This document shows, in pieces, positions 1 through 4,446 of a stretch of DNA of 34,779 nucleotides. The stretch spans positions 1 through 34,779 of IMG/VR virus record IMGVR_UViG_3300001213_000197. The stretch is one strand, 5' to 3'. Every line of letters begins with the position of its first letter. Within the stretch, counting starts at the first letter, position 1. Under the pieces are notes generated by a model, which was not told the origin of the DNA, did no database searches, and saw nothing but the letters and a program-made list of their open reading frames with translations. Origin of the DNA: a virus. The translations under genes were made by a program, and so were the position numbers.

Positions 1-754
1 GGATTATAGTTATTTCATCGAAGGAGCGTTTGAGCAAGTCTATCTGTTCTACGGAGATACTTGCTCCTAAAGTTGCTACCGCCGCAATTCCAACTTGTCC
101 AAGCCTGATAGTGTCGAAACTAGACTCGACAACATAGACATGGGGGCTGGTCCATACTCTATGTAGATTGAAAAGTAGCCTTGATTTTTGAAGTCCCCTG
201 CTATTGTTGAAGCGTTTGCCACTGACACTCCTTCCAACAATTCCAGCGAGACTTCCATTTTGTGTATGTATGGGGATTGCGACCATTCCCTGAGTAGATG
301 AGAATCCAAGTGTATAGTCTTGAATGGACCTATCTGAAATGTTCCTTGAATGTAAGTAGTCACTTCCCTCACCCCATACCTGAGAATGTAGTCTATCAAT
401 TATCGCTTGATCGAAAGGCGTAAATTCTTCCTCATCCAAACAACCGCTAATCAATTCTGTAATATTATAATCATATTCACCGATCAACCTTTTGGCTTGG
501 AAGTAGGAAATCTTGTTTGCCTTCATCACAAGATGAGTAAGATCGGTAGTACTTTGACAACTAAAACAATAGAACAAGCCGGATTCTTTATCTACCTCAG
601 CGGAGGGGGTAGAATGATTGGAATGATAAATACAAAATACAATAAAGTGACTAGAGATTTCAGATGCTATTCTGATGCCAGACTTGTTAAGGGCACTTCT
701 GACTTGTTGTTCTGAATATATATCGGTCTTGTTCCTAATAGGCCCACCAGACAT
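1..754 (-). CDS. dnaG: DnaG-type DNA primase (3' end beyond the left edge)
   Basis: Primase that would lay RNA primers for phage replication. The reading frame opens right after a TGA and starts with ATG at 754, preceded by AAGAGGA about 8 nt upstream. The 251 visible residues contain a CHC2-type zinc ribbon (C41-x2-H44 ... C63-x2-C66, in the contexts FCIYH and FYCFSCQ) and then a Toprim-like segment with VYVVESSFDTIRL (E210 as the expected acidic residue) and ATLGASIS (228-234). The Toprim DxD motif would lie just beyond the edge. The usual Toprim EG is ES here. The frame is open through base 1, so the C-terminus is missing. The gene overlaps the preceding 106-aa gene by 88 nt and follows the DnaB-type helicase, so it sits in a replication operon. 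Zinc-ribbon and Toprim calls rest on motif recognition. Confidence 0.85.
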   Translation of the reverse strand, partial: MSGGPIRNKTDIYSEQQVRSALNKSGIRIASEISSHFIVFCIYHSNHSTPSAEVDKESGLFYCFSCQSTTDLTHLVMKANKISYFQAKRLIGEYDYNITELISGCLDEEEFTPFDQAIIDRLHSQVWGEGSDYLHSRNISDRSIQDYTLGFSSTQGMVAIPIHTQNGSLAGIVGRSVSGKRFNNSRGLQKSRLLFNLHRVWTSPHVYVVESSFDTIRLGQVGIAAVATLGASISVEQIDLLKRSFDEITII

Positions 755-1012: not shown

Positions 1013-2239
1013 TTATGAAGTGGCATCATCGAAATCCATTTCCTGATATTGAAAAATGCCTGAGTTGAAATCACAGTCAAGAACAAAGTCAGTTAATGGC
1101 CCATTCCTATTTTTCCTCCAAGCAACTCCCATGATAGGAGAATTGTCTTGTCTTCCTACTGCCAACATGAAATCACAGTCATAGGCCAACTGCTTTGACC
1201 ATGCTACCTGCCCAAGTTCAGGAATGGTATCCATATTCGTAGCATCAGCAGGAGTAGCACTAACTACTCCAAGAATTGGTACTCCTGTACTCATGGCAAG
1301 TAGTTTCAGTTCTGTTGATAGGTTCTTCAACTTGACTGTCTCATTACCATCAGACCCGACATCTGGGGCCATCAACTGGAGGTAGTCAATGAATACAATG
1401 TCTGGATTGTATTCCTCAATCTTGCCTCTAAGCGCAGAAGGACTGAATCGACTATAACTATCATTTGAAATAATCGGGAAGATGTTCTTGCCATCAAACC
1501 TCTCAGTAGCCCAAGCCTTGAACTTCTCAACATCAACATCACCCCTCTGGAGGTTTCTCAGTAGCCATTCTCCACTACCGGCCACGGTATAGACCCTCGC
1601 CCTGACCTCTGCCTCCGTCATTTCAAGACTGACATAGAGAACCTTCTTGCCCATATCCCACGCATTGACAGCCATCAGGGTAGTTAGGAAACTCTTACCC
1701 CTACCGGGATAACCAAGGATCAGTCCCAACATACCGGGAACTACCCCCGAAGGTAGGAAGTCATCAATGCCGGGAATACCAAACTGAACACCATAGACTC
1801 CCCGCTCATTCAAAGCACGAATTCTTTCAATATGAGCAATGGCATCATCAACATCAGTAGCATCCAAGTCCCTGATGTCTGAGGTATCCTTCTTGAGGAT
1901 AGCCGAAGCCGAAATCATAGAATTGATTGCCCCGGCCAACTGACCATCCTGAAGCCTCTCAGAGGTTTCCCTGAGAATATCCCTGACCTGTCGTTTCATA
2001 TAGAGGTTCCTAAGATCCTCAATATGATGTTTGGTTGAGCCAACGTCAGTCATCAACCTAATGGCAAACTTATCATCAACAATTCTTGCTGGTGGCAAAT
2101 CCTTGTTCTTCTGGTAATACTCAATGACGAAATTATAGACATCGCCATAGGCATCAAACACATCAGGAGACACCTGTAGGAATGATGCCATGTCCCGATC
2201 CTGTAGAAGAGCACTGATAGCAGCAATTTCCTTGTTCAA
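1013..2239 (-). CDS. dnaB: Replicative DNA helicase, DnaB type
   Basis: Hexameric 5'-3' replicative helicase of the RecA/DnaB family, 408 aa. Residues 1-110 fit the small helical N-terminal domain that contacts primase; the ATPase domain starts near 150. Visible motifs: Walker A GYPGRGKS (176-183), a catalytic glutamate in VSLEM (E206), Walker B IVFIDYLQLM (281-290) and a C-terminal basic WRKNRNG that fits the arginine finger/beta-hairpin region. Start is TTG in a TTGA overlap with the stop of the preceding 105-aa gene, with GGAGAG upstream, so translation is coupled. It is part of the leftward replication operon with the primase. Somewhat shorter than bacterial DnaB (about 450-470 aa), as is common in phages. 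Confidence 0.93.
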   Translation of the reverse strand: MNKEIAAISALLQDRDMASFLQVSPDVFDAYGDVYNFVIEYYQKNKDLPPARIVDDKFAIRLMTDVGSTKHHIEDLRNLYMKRQVRDILRETSERLQDGQLAGAINSMISASAILKKDTSDIRDLDATDVDDAIAHIERIRALNERGVYGVQFGIPGIDDFLPSGVVPGMLGLILGYPGRGKSFLTTLMAVNAWDMGKKVLYVSLEMTEAEVRARVYTVAGSGEWLLRNLQRGDVDVEKFKAWATERFDGKNIFPIISNDSYSRFSPSALRGKIEEYNPDIVFIDYLQLMAPDVGSDGNETVKLKNLSTELKLLAMSTGVPILGVVSATPADATNMDTIPELGQVAWSKQLAYDCDFMLAVGRQDNSPIMGVAWRKNRNGPLTDFVLDCDFNSGIFQYQEMDFDDATS

Positions 2240-2553: not shown

Positions 2554-2729
2554 CCCTTTACTGTCCTATACTTCCTTCTCAACTGTGGACGATAACCTGA
2601 TCTGACAAGTTCCTGATATGCCTGACCATATTTATTCTCAAGACCCTGCGCTGTTCTACCCCCAGCATTTTGAAGATCATTCCAAGCCTGTAGAAGCCGA
2701 CGCTCAAGATCACTTCTGTCCAAGACCAT
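2550..2729 (-). CDS. Small basic protein, unknown (59 aa)
   Basis: Short arginine-rich protein (DRSDLERRLLQAWNDLQ ... RPQLRRKYRTVKG), helical by appearance, family not recognised. The ATG at 2729 is chosen because GAGGAG sits 4 nt upstream; an in-frame ATG at 2741 is the alternative (63 aa). It overlaps the end of the preceding gene by 20 nt and the start of the next by 4 nt (ATGA), so it is embedded in a tightly coupled cassette of small genes leading into the helicase. Its basic charge would suit nucleic-acid binding, but nothing in the sequence proves it. Confidence 0.6.
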   Translation of the reverse strand: MVLDRSDLERRLLQAWNDLQNAGGRTAQGLENKYGQAYQELVRSGYRPQLRRKYRTVKG

Positions 2730-2907
2730 CACGCTCCTCATTCACCCGATCAGTCAGATGCTTCTGAACAATTTCCTCAAGCCTATTGATAGCATCAATA
2801 GGATCTTCATAGTTCCTGACCTTATCCGTGATTCCATAGTCAAGACGTAGGGATTCAAAGTTCCCCAGATTAACAGTCATTCCAGCACTTACGGTTACAT
2901 CAGCCAT
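2710..2907 (-). CDS. Small conserved-looking protein, first gene of the replication operon (65 aa)
   Basis: Begins with a beta-like segment (VTVSAGMTVNLGNFESLRLDYGIT) followed by an amphipathic helix (DPIDAINRLEEIVQKHL). The pattern T-V-N-L-G-N-[FY]-E-S resembles small proteins I associate with phage and mobile-element replication regions, but I cannot name a characterised family. Start ATG at 2907 has a strong ribosome binding site, AAGGAG, 6 nt upstream. It is the first gene after a consensus promoter (2964-2936), so it leads the operon that ends in helicase and primase. Confidence 0.65.
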   Translation of the reverse strand: MADVTVSAGMTVNLGNFESLRLDYGITDKVRNYEDPIDAINRLEEIVQKHLTDRVNEERDGLGQK

Positions 2908-2935: not shown

Positions 2936-2964
2936 AGACTAGCACAAGATCATCTTTCTGTCAA
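2936..2964 (-). promoter_or_regulatory. Consensus promoter of the replication operon (P1)
   Basis: On the minus strand: TTGACA (2964-2959), exactly 17-nt spacer, TAGTCT (2941-2936) preceded by TGC, giving an extended -10. The predicted transcription start near 2929 leaves a short leader carrying the AAGGAG site of the 65-aa gene. The spacer contains AAGATGATCTT, an odd palindrome, and the block ATGATCTTGTG, which recurs at the same spacing in the rightward promoter at 3726-3754. Confidence 0.75.
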
Positions 2965-2986
2965 GGGCTACCCGCCACCTTGGGGA

Positions 2987-2996
2987 GGATCGATCC
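2987..2996. repeat. Palindrome GGATCGATCC, possible operator
   Basis: Perfect 10-bp palindrome, partly extended by flanking G and C runs, lying 22 bp upstream of the -35 of P1. It could be an operator or part of a hairpin ending the upstream tRNA transcript, but it has no T tract. Chance occurrence cannot be excluded. Confidence 0.3.
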
Positions 2997-3090
2997 CCCA
3001 CAATGCCTCTAGAACGCTCCAGACGCCCCTAGGAGCCTCAGAAACCCATAGGGTGGACCCGACTGCCAACTCGACCATTCTGAGCCTTAG

Positions 3091-3110
3091 AGAGCCGTAC
3101 AGAGCCGTAC
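3091..3110. repeat. Tandem direct repeat, 2 x AGAGCCGTAC
   Basis: Two exact adjacent copies of a 10-mer just 3' of the tRNA (on its strand). The rest of the gap between 2965 and 3117 shows no gene: all six frames are short and lack start and ribosome-site pairs. Confidence 0.45.
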
Positions 3111-3117
3111 AAAAGAT

Positions 3118-3191
3118 TGGCCTCCGTGGAAGGAGTTGCACCTTCATCTCCCACTTGACAGCGGGCGCATTACTAGATATGCTACACGGAG
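3118..3191 (-). tRNA. Atypical tRNA, probably tRNA-Asp(GUC), with encoded CCA
   Basis: Minus-strand cloverleaf. Acceptor CTCCGTG (3191-3185) pairs perfectly with CACGGAG (3128-3122), followed by discriminator G (3121) and encoded CCA (3120-3118). D arm is GCAT-ATCTAGTA-ATGC. Anticodon arm is CCCGC-TGTCAA-GTGGG (one G-U pair), then a 4-nt variable loop AGAT. T arm is GAAGG-TGCAACT-CCTTC. The anticodon loop has only 6 nt: reading T as position 33 gives anticodon GUC with position 32 missing. G73, G10-C25 and GUC are known aspartate identity elements. Departures: A18 instead of G18 and G55 instead of U55 (both would form the usual G18-psi55 contact). It starts 24 nt after the secreted-protein gene and is probably cotranscribed with it. 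It could be a degenerate or specialised tRNA. Confidence 0.6.
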
Positions 3192-3215
3192 GACTTGCTA
3201 GTCTAAAGATTTAGA

Positions 3216-3665
3216 TTAGCGGCCACGGCGGGTAAGTTCTAGAGTCTCACTGCATGAGACTCCTGTTCCAGCAACTCGTAGAGTGACCCGAACATTGTCA
3301 GCACCGCGTGGAATGGCGACTGATCCCTCAACATCACCACGACGATCTAGACGAACCCAAACTGTCTCGTCACCACGACCATTACGGGTATCGAAGTTGA
3401 CGTTGTACCAAGCAAGACCATTACGAACAGAAGTATTTGCCTCAATGTCTAGAGAACGACGATTCTGATCTAGATCAATACTACAACGACGAGCATTGCG
3501 ACGATCATTACGATTGTCACGACGGTCGTCGCCATCCCGGTTCTCTACTCCGGGGCGATTATTACGGTTACCTTCATCAGTATTTGCAGACGCTAGAGAG
3601 GGCGTCATGAATATTAGCGCGGTTGCACCAAACAGTGCAGCATATGTACAGGTTCTTTTAACCAT
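3216..3665 (-). CDS. Secreted Arg/Asp/Asn-rich protein with signal peptide (149 aa)
   Basis: Residues 1-27 form a classical signal peptide: basic start MVKRT, hydrophobic core AALFGATALIF, and an AXA-type site SLASA before N28. A low-complexity stretch follows, very rich in Arg, Asp and Asn (GDDRRDNRNDRRNARR), then an approximately 90-residue beta-rich domain with two cysteines (RRCSID and VSCSET) that could form a disulfide, as in Ig-like extracytoplasmic folds. Family not recognised. The start is ATG 3665, not an upstream in-frame codon at 3701, because a consensus promoter (-10 at 3678-3673) ends 7 nt before it, predicting a leaderless mRNA. The gene stands alone between control elements, unlike its operonic neighbours, and looks like a host-interaction or acquired (moron-like) gene. 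That role is inference. Confidence 0.75.
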   Translation of the reverse strand: MVKRTCTYAALFGATALIFMTPSLASANTDEGNRNNRPGVENRDGDDRRDNRNDRRNARRCSIDLDQNRRSLDIEANTSVRNGLAWYNVNFDTRNGRGDETVWVRLDRRGDVEGSVAIPRGADNVRVTLRVAGTGVSCSETLELTRRGR

Positions 3666-3672
3666 GATGCCA

Positions 3673-3701
3673 ATTGTACCATAGCATGGGCGTTTTGTCA
3701 A
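3673..3701 (-). promoter_or_regulatory. Consensus promoter of the secreted-protein gene and tRNA (P3)
   Basis: TTGACA (3701-3696), 17-nt spacer, TACAAT (3678-3673) preceded by TGG. The predicted start site falls on or next to the ATG at 3665, and no Shine-Dalgarno sequence is present between them, so the mRNA should be leaderless. Confidence 0.8.
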
Positions 3702-3725
3702 GTATGTCCCAAATTTCTTGCCCTC

Positions 3726-3754
3726 TTGACAGGATTATGATCTTGTGGTACGAT
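3726..3754 (+). promoter_or_regulatory. Rightward promoter (P4) sharing the P1 spacer
   Basis: TTGACA (3726-3731), 17-nt spacer, TACGAT (3749-3754) preceded by TGG. It diverges from P3, whose -35 is 24 bp away. Over -35 plus spacer start it matches P1 in TTGACAG and in ATGATCTTGTG at identical positions. It is the best rightward promoter in a window where all genes run leftward; the transcript would start near 3761. Confidence 0.6.
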
Positions 3755-3760
3755 ATGACC

Positions 3761-3900
3761 GTAAGGGGGGTTTGGGGGGATCAGGGTTGTTGTTGGTTTT
3801 GACTTTGGTTCTTAGGGTTTATAGGTAACAGGAGCGCAGCGACTGTTACGTTGAGCGTAGCGAAACAAAACTCTTATATATATACTACCCTGATACTCTT
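3761..3900 (+). ncRNA. Candidate structured non-coding RNA from P4
   Basis: The DNA downstream of P4 has no credible ORF (an ATG at 3755 is upstream of the predicted start site and its frame stops after 15 codons). It can fold: ATCAGGGT (3780-3787) is perfectly complementary to ACCCTGAT (3887-3894), closing a domain of about 100 nt. Inside it GTAACAG (3825-3831) pairs with CTGTTAC (3843-3849) around an 11-nt loop. No clear T-tract terminator follows; the 3' end is a guess. If it reads on, it is antisense to the 168-aa gene at 3940. The same DNA is the 3' untranslated region of the leftward late operon, so the structure might act on that strand instead. Confidence 0.4.
3832..3863. repeat. Direct repeat GAGCGYAGCGA x2
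   Basis: GAGCGCAGCGA at 3832-3842, exactly the loop of the GTAACAG/CTGTTAC hairpin, and GAGCGTAGCGA at 3853-3863 just outside it, differing by one base. The 21-bp periodicity (two helical turns) would suit side-by-side protein binding. Confidence 0.45.
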
Positions 3901-3939
3901 GATTCCTCTTTATGAATATTATAATATAATATATATGTA

Positions 3940-4446
3940 TTACATTGAGTCATTCCACAGAGGAACTAGTTGTCCCTGCTTGTTCTTCTTATAAGTTACA
4001 TACCCTCTAGCAAATAGTTTCTTCAACTCATAGGCTGAGGGGGTTCCTTTACGATCTTTATACTCTAGGAGTATAGATAGATCAATAAGATCATCAAGGG
4101 AGAAGAAGGCTAAACTACTTTGCTTTGGAGGGGGTTCTCCAACCTTACCCCTCTTAGGCTTGATCCCTAACTCCTTACAGTAGTCTGTAAAAGTATCTGG
4201 GGGAACCTTGAGGATGATCGAAGCCTCAACTCTCTTGATCGCTGGAGAGCCTTTCTGCCAATCAGCCTTTGAGATGTATACGTTTCTTAGGTTTCTACTA
4301 TCCCATACCAGTAGTGGATCACGACCTTGAATCTTCATATATAGGGAGTCGTTGAATATTCTACGAGTACTAGTTCTTTTGAAGATGTCTCTCATGACAT
4401 CATCGAATGTCTTCCACCTATATGACGTATGGACATATATTCCCAT
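3940..4446 (-). CDS. Unknown protein paired with the HNH endonuclease (168 aa)
   Basis: Basic soluble protein without membrane segments or a family I recognise. The N-terminal third is rich in Arg and aromatic residues (RWKTFDDVMRDIFKRTSTRRIFNDSLYMKI); a proline/lysine linker (KPKRGKVGEPPPKQ) near residue 100 separates it from a C-terminal helical part ending in a basic tail (YVTYKKNKQGQLVP). This two-part layout would suit DNA binding but nothing is diagnostic. Start ATG 4446 has GGAGGA 6 nt upstream. It overlaps the HNH gene by 29 nt, so the two are probably co-expressed. It is the last gene of the late leftward transcript before the control region. Confidence 0.75.
   Translation of the reverse strand: MGIYVHTSYRWKTFDDVMRDIFKRTSTRRIFNDSLYMKIQGRDPLLVWDSRNLRNVYISKADWQKGSPAIKRVEASIILKVPPDTFTDYCKELGIKPKRGKVGEPPPKQSSLAFFSLDDLIDLSILLEYKDRKGTPSAYELKKLFARGYVTYKKNKQGQLVPLWNDSM

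What the first reader, a model, noticed from the sequence alone, without database searches (positions are those of the whole stretch)
2936..3754. Two opposed promoters share an identical -35 and 11-bp spacer block
P1 (minus, 2964-2936, replication operon) and P4 (plus, 3726-3754) both read TTGACAG, four variable bases, ATGATCTTGTG, one variable base, then a TAnnnT -10. That is 18 of the first 22 bases identical at the same spacing, while the other TTGACA promoters (3701-3673, 33225-33197) lack the block. A shared spacer element between -35 and -10 is what a repressor or activator operator looks like, so one regulator may control both replication and the rightward RNA.
Basis: seen in the sequence. 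Interest (0 to 1): 0.65.

Follow-up and report, generated by a model that had tools for sequence, protein, structure and literature searches.

The report
Twin phage promoters around inserted cassette
Two outward-facing promoters in an uncultured actinophage-like genome really do share an unusual 11-base spacer, probably because one is an inverted copy of the other; shared control by one protein is possible, but no relative carries the block, so this is a modest and mostly ordinary finding.

Summary
P1 (2964-2936, minus) and P4 (3726-3754, plus) read TTGACAG-N4-ATGATCTTGTG-N-TAnnnT, 19 of the first 22 bases identical. The 11-mer occurs nowhere else in the window, and 13/17 identical spacer bases is not chance (about 7e-5 per promoter pair; 0 of 200 shuffled windows). 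Part of the block, TGn, is an ordinary extended -10. P1 does drive a replication operon (DnaB helicase, DnaG-type primase). P4 heads no ORF of 60 aa or more, but the RNA starting at its predicted +1 folds into a 154-nt hairpin, best scored exactly at that start.

In 59 distinct relatives the replication promoter lies inside the C-terminal codons of an upstream MerR-like HTH gene. Its -35 and -10 codons are frozen; its spacer codons vary. In the window that embedded promoter has decayed, and a lineage-specific insertion (~2966-3939: tRNA-like gene, secreted-protein gene, P4 RNA) separates HTH gene and operon. P1 and P4 form inverted arms bracketing the tRNA and secreted gene. I favour inverted promoter duplication, with the block kept as extended -10 plus a possible operator. 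The shared-operator claim is unproven: no relative carries the block, and only distant relatives (helicase about 45% identical) were found.

The parts
2936..2964 (-). P1, promoter of the replication operon: TTGACA-17-TAGTCT with TGn extended -10
   Evidence: conserved promoter position upstream of the phrog_5189 gene in relatives
3726..3754 (+). P4, rightward promoter TTGACA-17-TACGAT with TGn extended -10
   Evidence: best RNA fold starts at its predicted +1
2943..2953 (-). shared spacer block ATGATCTTGTG in P1
3737..3747 (+). shared spacer block ATGATCTTGTG in P4
2940..2965 (.). left arm of the 26-nt, 85% inverted repeat containing P1
3725..3750 (.). right arm of the inverted repeat containing P4
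2966..3939 (.). segment absent between the HTH gene and the replication operon of relatives L053 and L054: tRNA-like gene, secreted-protein gene, P3, P4 and P4 RNA
   Evidence: synteny
3121..3191 (-). tRNA-like gene with encoded CCA; one base short in the anticodon loop
   Evidence: Rfam RF00005 47.6 bits; not reported by ARAGORN
3216..3665 (-). small protein with a signal-peptide-like N-terminus, no known relatives; transcribed from P3
3673..3701 (-). P3, TTGACA-17-TACAAT, no shared block
3761..3914 (+). predicted non-coding RNA from P4: long irregular hairpin with paired ends, -54.4 kcal/mol
3940..4446 (-). MerR/excisionase-like winged-HTH protein, candidate regulator
3998..4026 (-). decayed remnant of the coding-embedded replication promoter (TTGAAG-17-GTATGT)
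   Evidence: window codons compared with relatives
2710..2907 (-). first gene of the replication operon, 65 aa, phrog_5189
1013..2239 (-). DnaB-like replicative helicase
2..754 (-). DNA primase (CHC2 zinc finger, DnaG N-terminal domain, Toprim), cut by the end of the record

Best explanation
P1 and P4 are two host-type sigma-A promoters (TTGACA -35, 17-bp spacer, TGn extended -10) related by inverted duplication, at the borders of a cassette (tRNA-like gene plus secreted-protein gene) that this phage lineage acquired between its HTH gene and its replication operon. Ancestrally the operon was driven by a promoter embedded in the 3' coding end of the HTH gene. After the insertion that promoter decayed and P1, next to the operon, took over. 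P4, the sister copy, transcribes a ~154-nt structured non-coding RNA in the opposite direction. The TG at the end of the block is read by sigma as an extended -10. The remaining bases (G next to the -35, and ATGATCTTG) stayed identical while the four bases between diverged, so they may also be an operator through which both promoters respond to one protein; the MerR-like HTH protein encoded next door is the obvious candidate. Shown: the sequences, non-chance similarity, operon content, insertion relative to relatives, the embedded promoter in relatives and its decay here, the HTH fold (moderate confidence). Inferred: duplication, P1 replacing the embedded promoter, the ncRNA, and any protein binding.
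For: Spacer identity beyond chance. The similarity extends as a 26-nt inverted repeat whose arms bracket the tRNA-like gene and secreted-protein gene absent from L053 and L054. Promoter orthologue in 59 distinct relatives: Leu TTG 59/59, Thr ACA 56/59, Gly GGT 59/59, Ile ATA 57/59, with variable Arg and Gly codons in the spacer; remnant TTGAAG-17-GTATGT in the window. P4 RNA: z -3.5 over an unselected 200 nt, matched or bettered by 8 of 315 sampled windows, and the best start among 14 tested is exactly the predicted +1 (z about -5), on the P4 strand. Leaving out TGn, all three spacer mismatches fall in the four bases between the blocks: C(4,3)/C(14,3) = 0.011, hand calculation, post hoc.
Against: Similarity stops at the promoter edges, so a duplication would have to be old or very short. 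There are only two copies in one genome and no close relative, so neither descent nor selection can be shown directly. The P4 RNA has no detectable homologue and other windows fold equally well. The -10 of P1 (TAGTCT) is weak.
Confidence: 0.5

Rival explanations
1. Shared operator: the spacer block is a binding site for one phage or host regulator, for instance the adjacent MerR-like HTH protein, that switches the replication operon and the P4 RNA together. The similarity is selected, not inherited.
For: The block is more conserved than its neighbours. A MerR-like HTH gene lies next to P1/P4 and next to the replication promoter in about 60 relatives, and MerR-type proteins classically bind in the promoter spacer (own knowledge). 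In two relatives where the replication promoter lies outside coding sequence the spacer is a long dyad: L053 ACTCCTCA-CTA-TGAGGAGT, p 0.002; L142 group TCACAGA-CT-TCTGTGA, p 0.008.
Against: The spacer is free to vary in 59 relatives. Dyads in relatives differ in sequence and none recurs elsewhere in its record, where searched. P1 has only a 5-bp dyad (p 0.12) and P4 none. Classic MerR operators need 19-20 bp spacers; these are 17.
Confidence: 0.28
2. Generic promoter sequence and coincidence: both are good extended -10 promoters and the rest of the block matches by accident.
For: TGn is shared by most strong promoters here; the full pattern occurs in unrelated phage lineages and in Clostridia and Acidobacteria MAGs; the block alone is not enriched in the window.
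Against: After allowing for TGn, 13/17 identity has probability about 4e-4 per pair; 0 of 200 shuffles reach it.
Confidence: 0.15
3. The inverted repeats are recombination or transposition ends (an invertible segment or a small mobile cassette with outward promoters).
For: 26-nt inverted arms 759 nt apart around cargo absent from relatives; TA on both outer sides of the matching core.
Against: No resolvase/invertase or tyrosine recombinase domain found in the record (the record is a fragment); the arms coincide exactly with promoter elements, and the TA is part of the -10.
Confidence: 0.06

Closest known systems
Cluster A mycobacteriophage operator/stoperator system (L5, TipsytheTRex; PMC9283540)
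   Same: A short asymmetric site near promoters, with TTGACA/TGTCAA in the site, in a phage probably of actinobacteria.
   Different: Those genomes carry many sites (26 in TipsytheTRex); here two. Stoperator-like 13-mers are no more frequent than chance here (17 found, 15.6 expected; consensus from my own knowledge).
MerR-family spacer operators
   Same: A MerR-like HTH gene sits beside the promoters; relatives have dyads between -35 and -10.
   Different: Spacer is 17 bp, not 19-20; no dyad in P4; binding untested.
Replication region of Stanwilliamsviridae (Streptomyces phages Blueeyedbeauty, BillNye)
   Same: Similar order of tail genes, HNH, HTH gene, small genes, DnaB helicase and primase; BillNye has an HTH protein of the same predicted fold.
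   Different: Helicase only 35% identical; no embedded TTGACA promoter seen at the equivalent place of Blueeyedbeauty; no insertion like 2966-3939.
Extended -10 sigma-A promoters
   Same: TTGACA, 17 bp, TGn, TAnnnT at both sites.
   Different: The additional identical spacer bases (ATGATCTTG) are not part of the consensus.

Membership tests
sigma-A extended -10 promoter | -35 near TTGACA, 16-18 bp spacer, TGn before TAnnnT | tested here: met
sigma-A extended -10 promoter | transcription start 6-8 nt after the -10 | not testable with these tools
   no RNA data; the RNA fold optimum at 3761 is indirect support
Cluster A stoperator system | many copies of a 13-bp asymmetric site across the genome | tested here: not met
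   17 with up to 3 mismatches against 15.6 expected; block itself only twice
MerR-type spacer operator | dyad between -35 and -10 with 19-20 bp spacing | tested here: not met
   17-bp spacers; best dyad in P1 5 bp (p 0.12), in P4 3 bp
MerR-type spacer operator | MerR-like HTH regulator in the locus | tested here: met
   Foldseek PDB top hits RacA/MerR but weak (E about 0.1, prob 0.99); BFVD E 3e-8, 5e-6 BillNye HTH protein; HTH_17 in relative L053 just below cut-off
Shared-regulator operator pair | site conserved at orthologous promoters | tested here: not met
   absent from orthologous promoters in 59 distinct relatives; no close relatives available
Shared-regulator operator pair | protein binding or response to block mutation | not testable with these tools
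   needs bench work
Invertible or mobile cassette | recombinase encoded nearby | tested here: not met
   no PF00239 or PF00589 in the record; record is a fragment

The most novel reading that the evidence does not exclude
A phage MerR-like protein reads a 17-bp-spacer operator to switch on, together, the replication operon and an opposed structured RNA whose locus (G-rich start, GCGNAGC mini-hairpins, AT-rich tract at 3874-3945) acts in replication, for example as an origin-priming or origin-opening transcript.
Probability: 0.08. Interest if true: 0.6.

Novelty: new member of a known kind. Interest (0 to 1): 0.3.

Why it matters
If the two promoters are co-regulated, they tie phage DNA replication to a new non-coding RNA and point to the MerR-like protein encoded next door as the switch. 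Even without that, the comparison shows how a replication promoter hidden inside the coding end of a regulator gene in many relatives was replaced when a cassette was inserted behind that gene.

Tried and rejected
Stoperators: no excess of sites. Block as a genome-wide element: only two exact copies, near-matches at chance level. P4 counterpart in relatives: the antisense TTGACA sites seen there at about 320-350 nt lie in the HTH motif codons of a subset and look like a coding by-product. P4 RNA in Rfam, in phage records, by a single-sequence covariance model: nothing. The weak pattern match in record G021 (L051, TTGACAACAGTCCGATCTTGAGCTAGACT) lies in unannotated short-ORF sequence and I made nothing of it. 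Exact-pattern hits elsewhere: unrelated phages with no protein similarity to the window, and MAG contigs. Close relatives by DNA: none among phages. A coarse structure scan (16 shuffles, 50-nt steps) did not pick out the P4 RNA, probably because its ends were cut.

Full report
The observation. The 11-mer is found exactly twice in the record. Near copies are not enriched.

Chance. A position-specific model built from 47 dissimilar spacers of TTGACA-17-TAnnnT sites in the fetched DNA gives 7e-5 per pair for 13/17 and 5e-6 for a run of 11. If both spacers are required to carry the TG of an extended -10, the figures are 4e-4 and 2e-5. With seven such sites, hence 21 pairs, the match is unlikely by chance. 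No dinucleotide shuffle of the window produced one (0 of 200). The 26-nt inverted repeat that contains the match would not by itself be remarkable in 35 kb; its coincidence with two promoters is what counts.

The phage. The record is a 34.8-kb virus record of the IMG/VR kind, probably a fragment. It has a DnaB-like helicase, a DnaG-type primase, portal, protease, major capsid, tail genes and a ribonucleotide reductase, all leftward. Its nearest named relatives for the helicase and the capsid protein are Streptomyces phages, for the helicase of the Stanwilliamsviridae, at about 35% and 41% identity. No DNA-level relative was found among phage records.

Relatives. A helicase profile fetched 80 loci (45-48% identical), to which I added records L053 and L054. 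In 82 of 83 sequences, the window included, the 65-70-aa phrog_5189 gene that begins the operon was found. In most, a TTGACA-17-TATACT promoter lies upstream of it inside the last codons of the preceding gene, which encodes ...QELTRRMGDGILTYTK.... Across 59 distinct sequences the -35 and -10 codons are frozen (Leu TTG 59/59, Thr ACA 56/59, Gly GGT 59/59, Ile ATA 57/59), while spacer Arg and Gly codons vary. So the replication promoter is real and probably ancestral, and its spacer is not a conserved operator across the family.

What changed here. In the window the same codons read TTG AAG ... GGG TAT GTA: the embedded promoter has decayed. Between the HTH gene and the operon lies about 1 kb absent from L053 and L054. 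It carries a tRNA-like gene with one base missing in the anticodon loop, a small protein with a signal-peptide-like N-terminus and no known relatives, its promoter P3, and P4. P1 lies at the operon end. P1 and P4 face outward and bracket the tRNA and the secreted gene. That P1 replaced the embedded promoter, and that P1 and P4 are inverted copies, is inference.

Relatives in which a promoter lies outside coding sequence are instructive. L053 has ACTCCTCA-CTA-TGAGGAGT and the L142 group TCACAGA-CT-TCTGTGA in the spacer (dyad p 0.002 and 0.008); L140 has a weaker one (p 0.12). P1 has AAGAT-G-ATCTT (p 0.12) and P4 no dyad. The L053 and L142-group dyads do not recur in the parts of their records searched. 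L142 keeps the embedded promoter as well. This leaves room for lineage-specific control in the spacer, but not for a conserved regulon.

The P4 product. Downstream of P4 there is no rightward ORF of 60 aa or more before 6286. The RNA from the predicted +1, 3761, folds at -58.4 kcal/mol over 200 nt, z -3.5, 0 of 200 shuffles; 8 of 315 sampled windows reach that z. Trimmed to 3761-3914 the fold is one long hairpin with paired ends and 14 G-U pairs. Among starts every 10 nt from 3701 to 3831, z is by far lowest at 3761 (-5.2), and the opposite strand is weaker. The trimmed z is biased by the choice of ends. No homologue was found, so the RNA is a candidate only.

The candidate regulator. The 168-aa product of 3940-4446 aligns with the 170-180-aa proteins of relatives, which carry an HTH_17/MerR-like motif. 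Its model (mean pLDDT 74) matches RacA/MerR-type domains weakly in the PDB (E about 0.1) and phage HTH proteins in BFVD (E 3e-8; 5e-6 for Streptomyces phage BillNye). P4 reads toward the 3' end of this gene, so its transcript, if long, would be antisense to it. Whether the protein binds P1 or P4 is untested.

Verdict. A true, non-chance similarity between two promoters. The likeliest reading is inverted promoter duplication around an acquired cassette, with an extended -10 that accounts for part of the block and a possible but unproven common operator.

Noticed in passing
L109, L054 and 57 other distinct relatives; example L054:4354-4382: The replication-operon promoter is embedded in the C-terminal coding sequence of the upstream HTH gene, with frozen synonymous sites at the -35 and -10.
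   Followed up: yes
L053:2715-2743 and L142:3428-3456: Promoters whose whole spacer is a 7-8 bp-arm palindrome, different in each lineage, each a single copy in the DNA searched.
   Followed up: partly
window 3121-3191 (-): tRNA-like gene with encoded CCA that Rfam accepts and ARAGORN does not report; the anticodon loop is one base short (UGUCAA).
   Followed up: partly
window 3665-3673 (-): P3 lies so close to the start codon of the secreted-protein gene that its mRNA would be leaderless or nearly so.
   Followed up: no
window 3832-3842 and 3853-3863 (+): Two GAGCGNAGCGA elements (each with a GCGNAGC mini-hairpin) 10 nt apart inside the P4 RNA; the doublet is common in unrelated phage contigs.
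   Followed up: partly
window 3874-3945: AT-rich tract next to a G6-TTT-G6 stretch (3765-3779), reminiscent of a transcription-dependent origin.
   Followed up: no
L059:13165-13193 (+): Consensus promoter TTGACACCTTCACAAAAGGTGCTTATAAT in relative G006 with a 6-bp-arm dyad overlapping its -35 and spacer (p 0.03).
   Followed up: no
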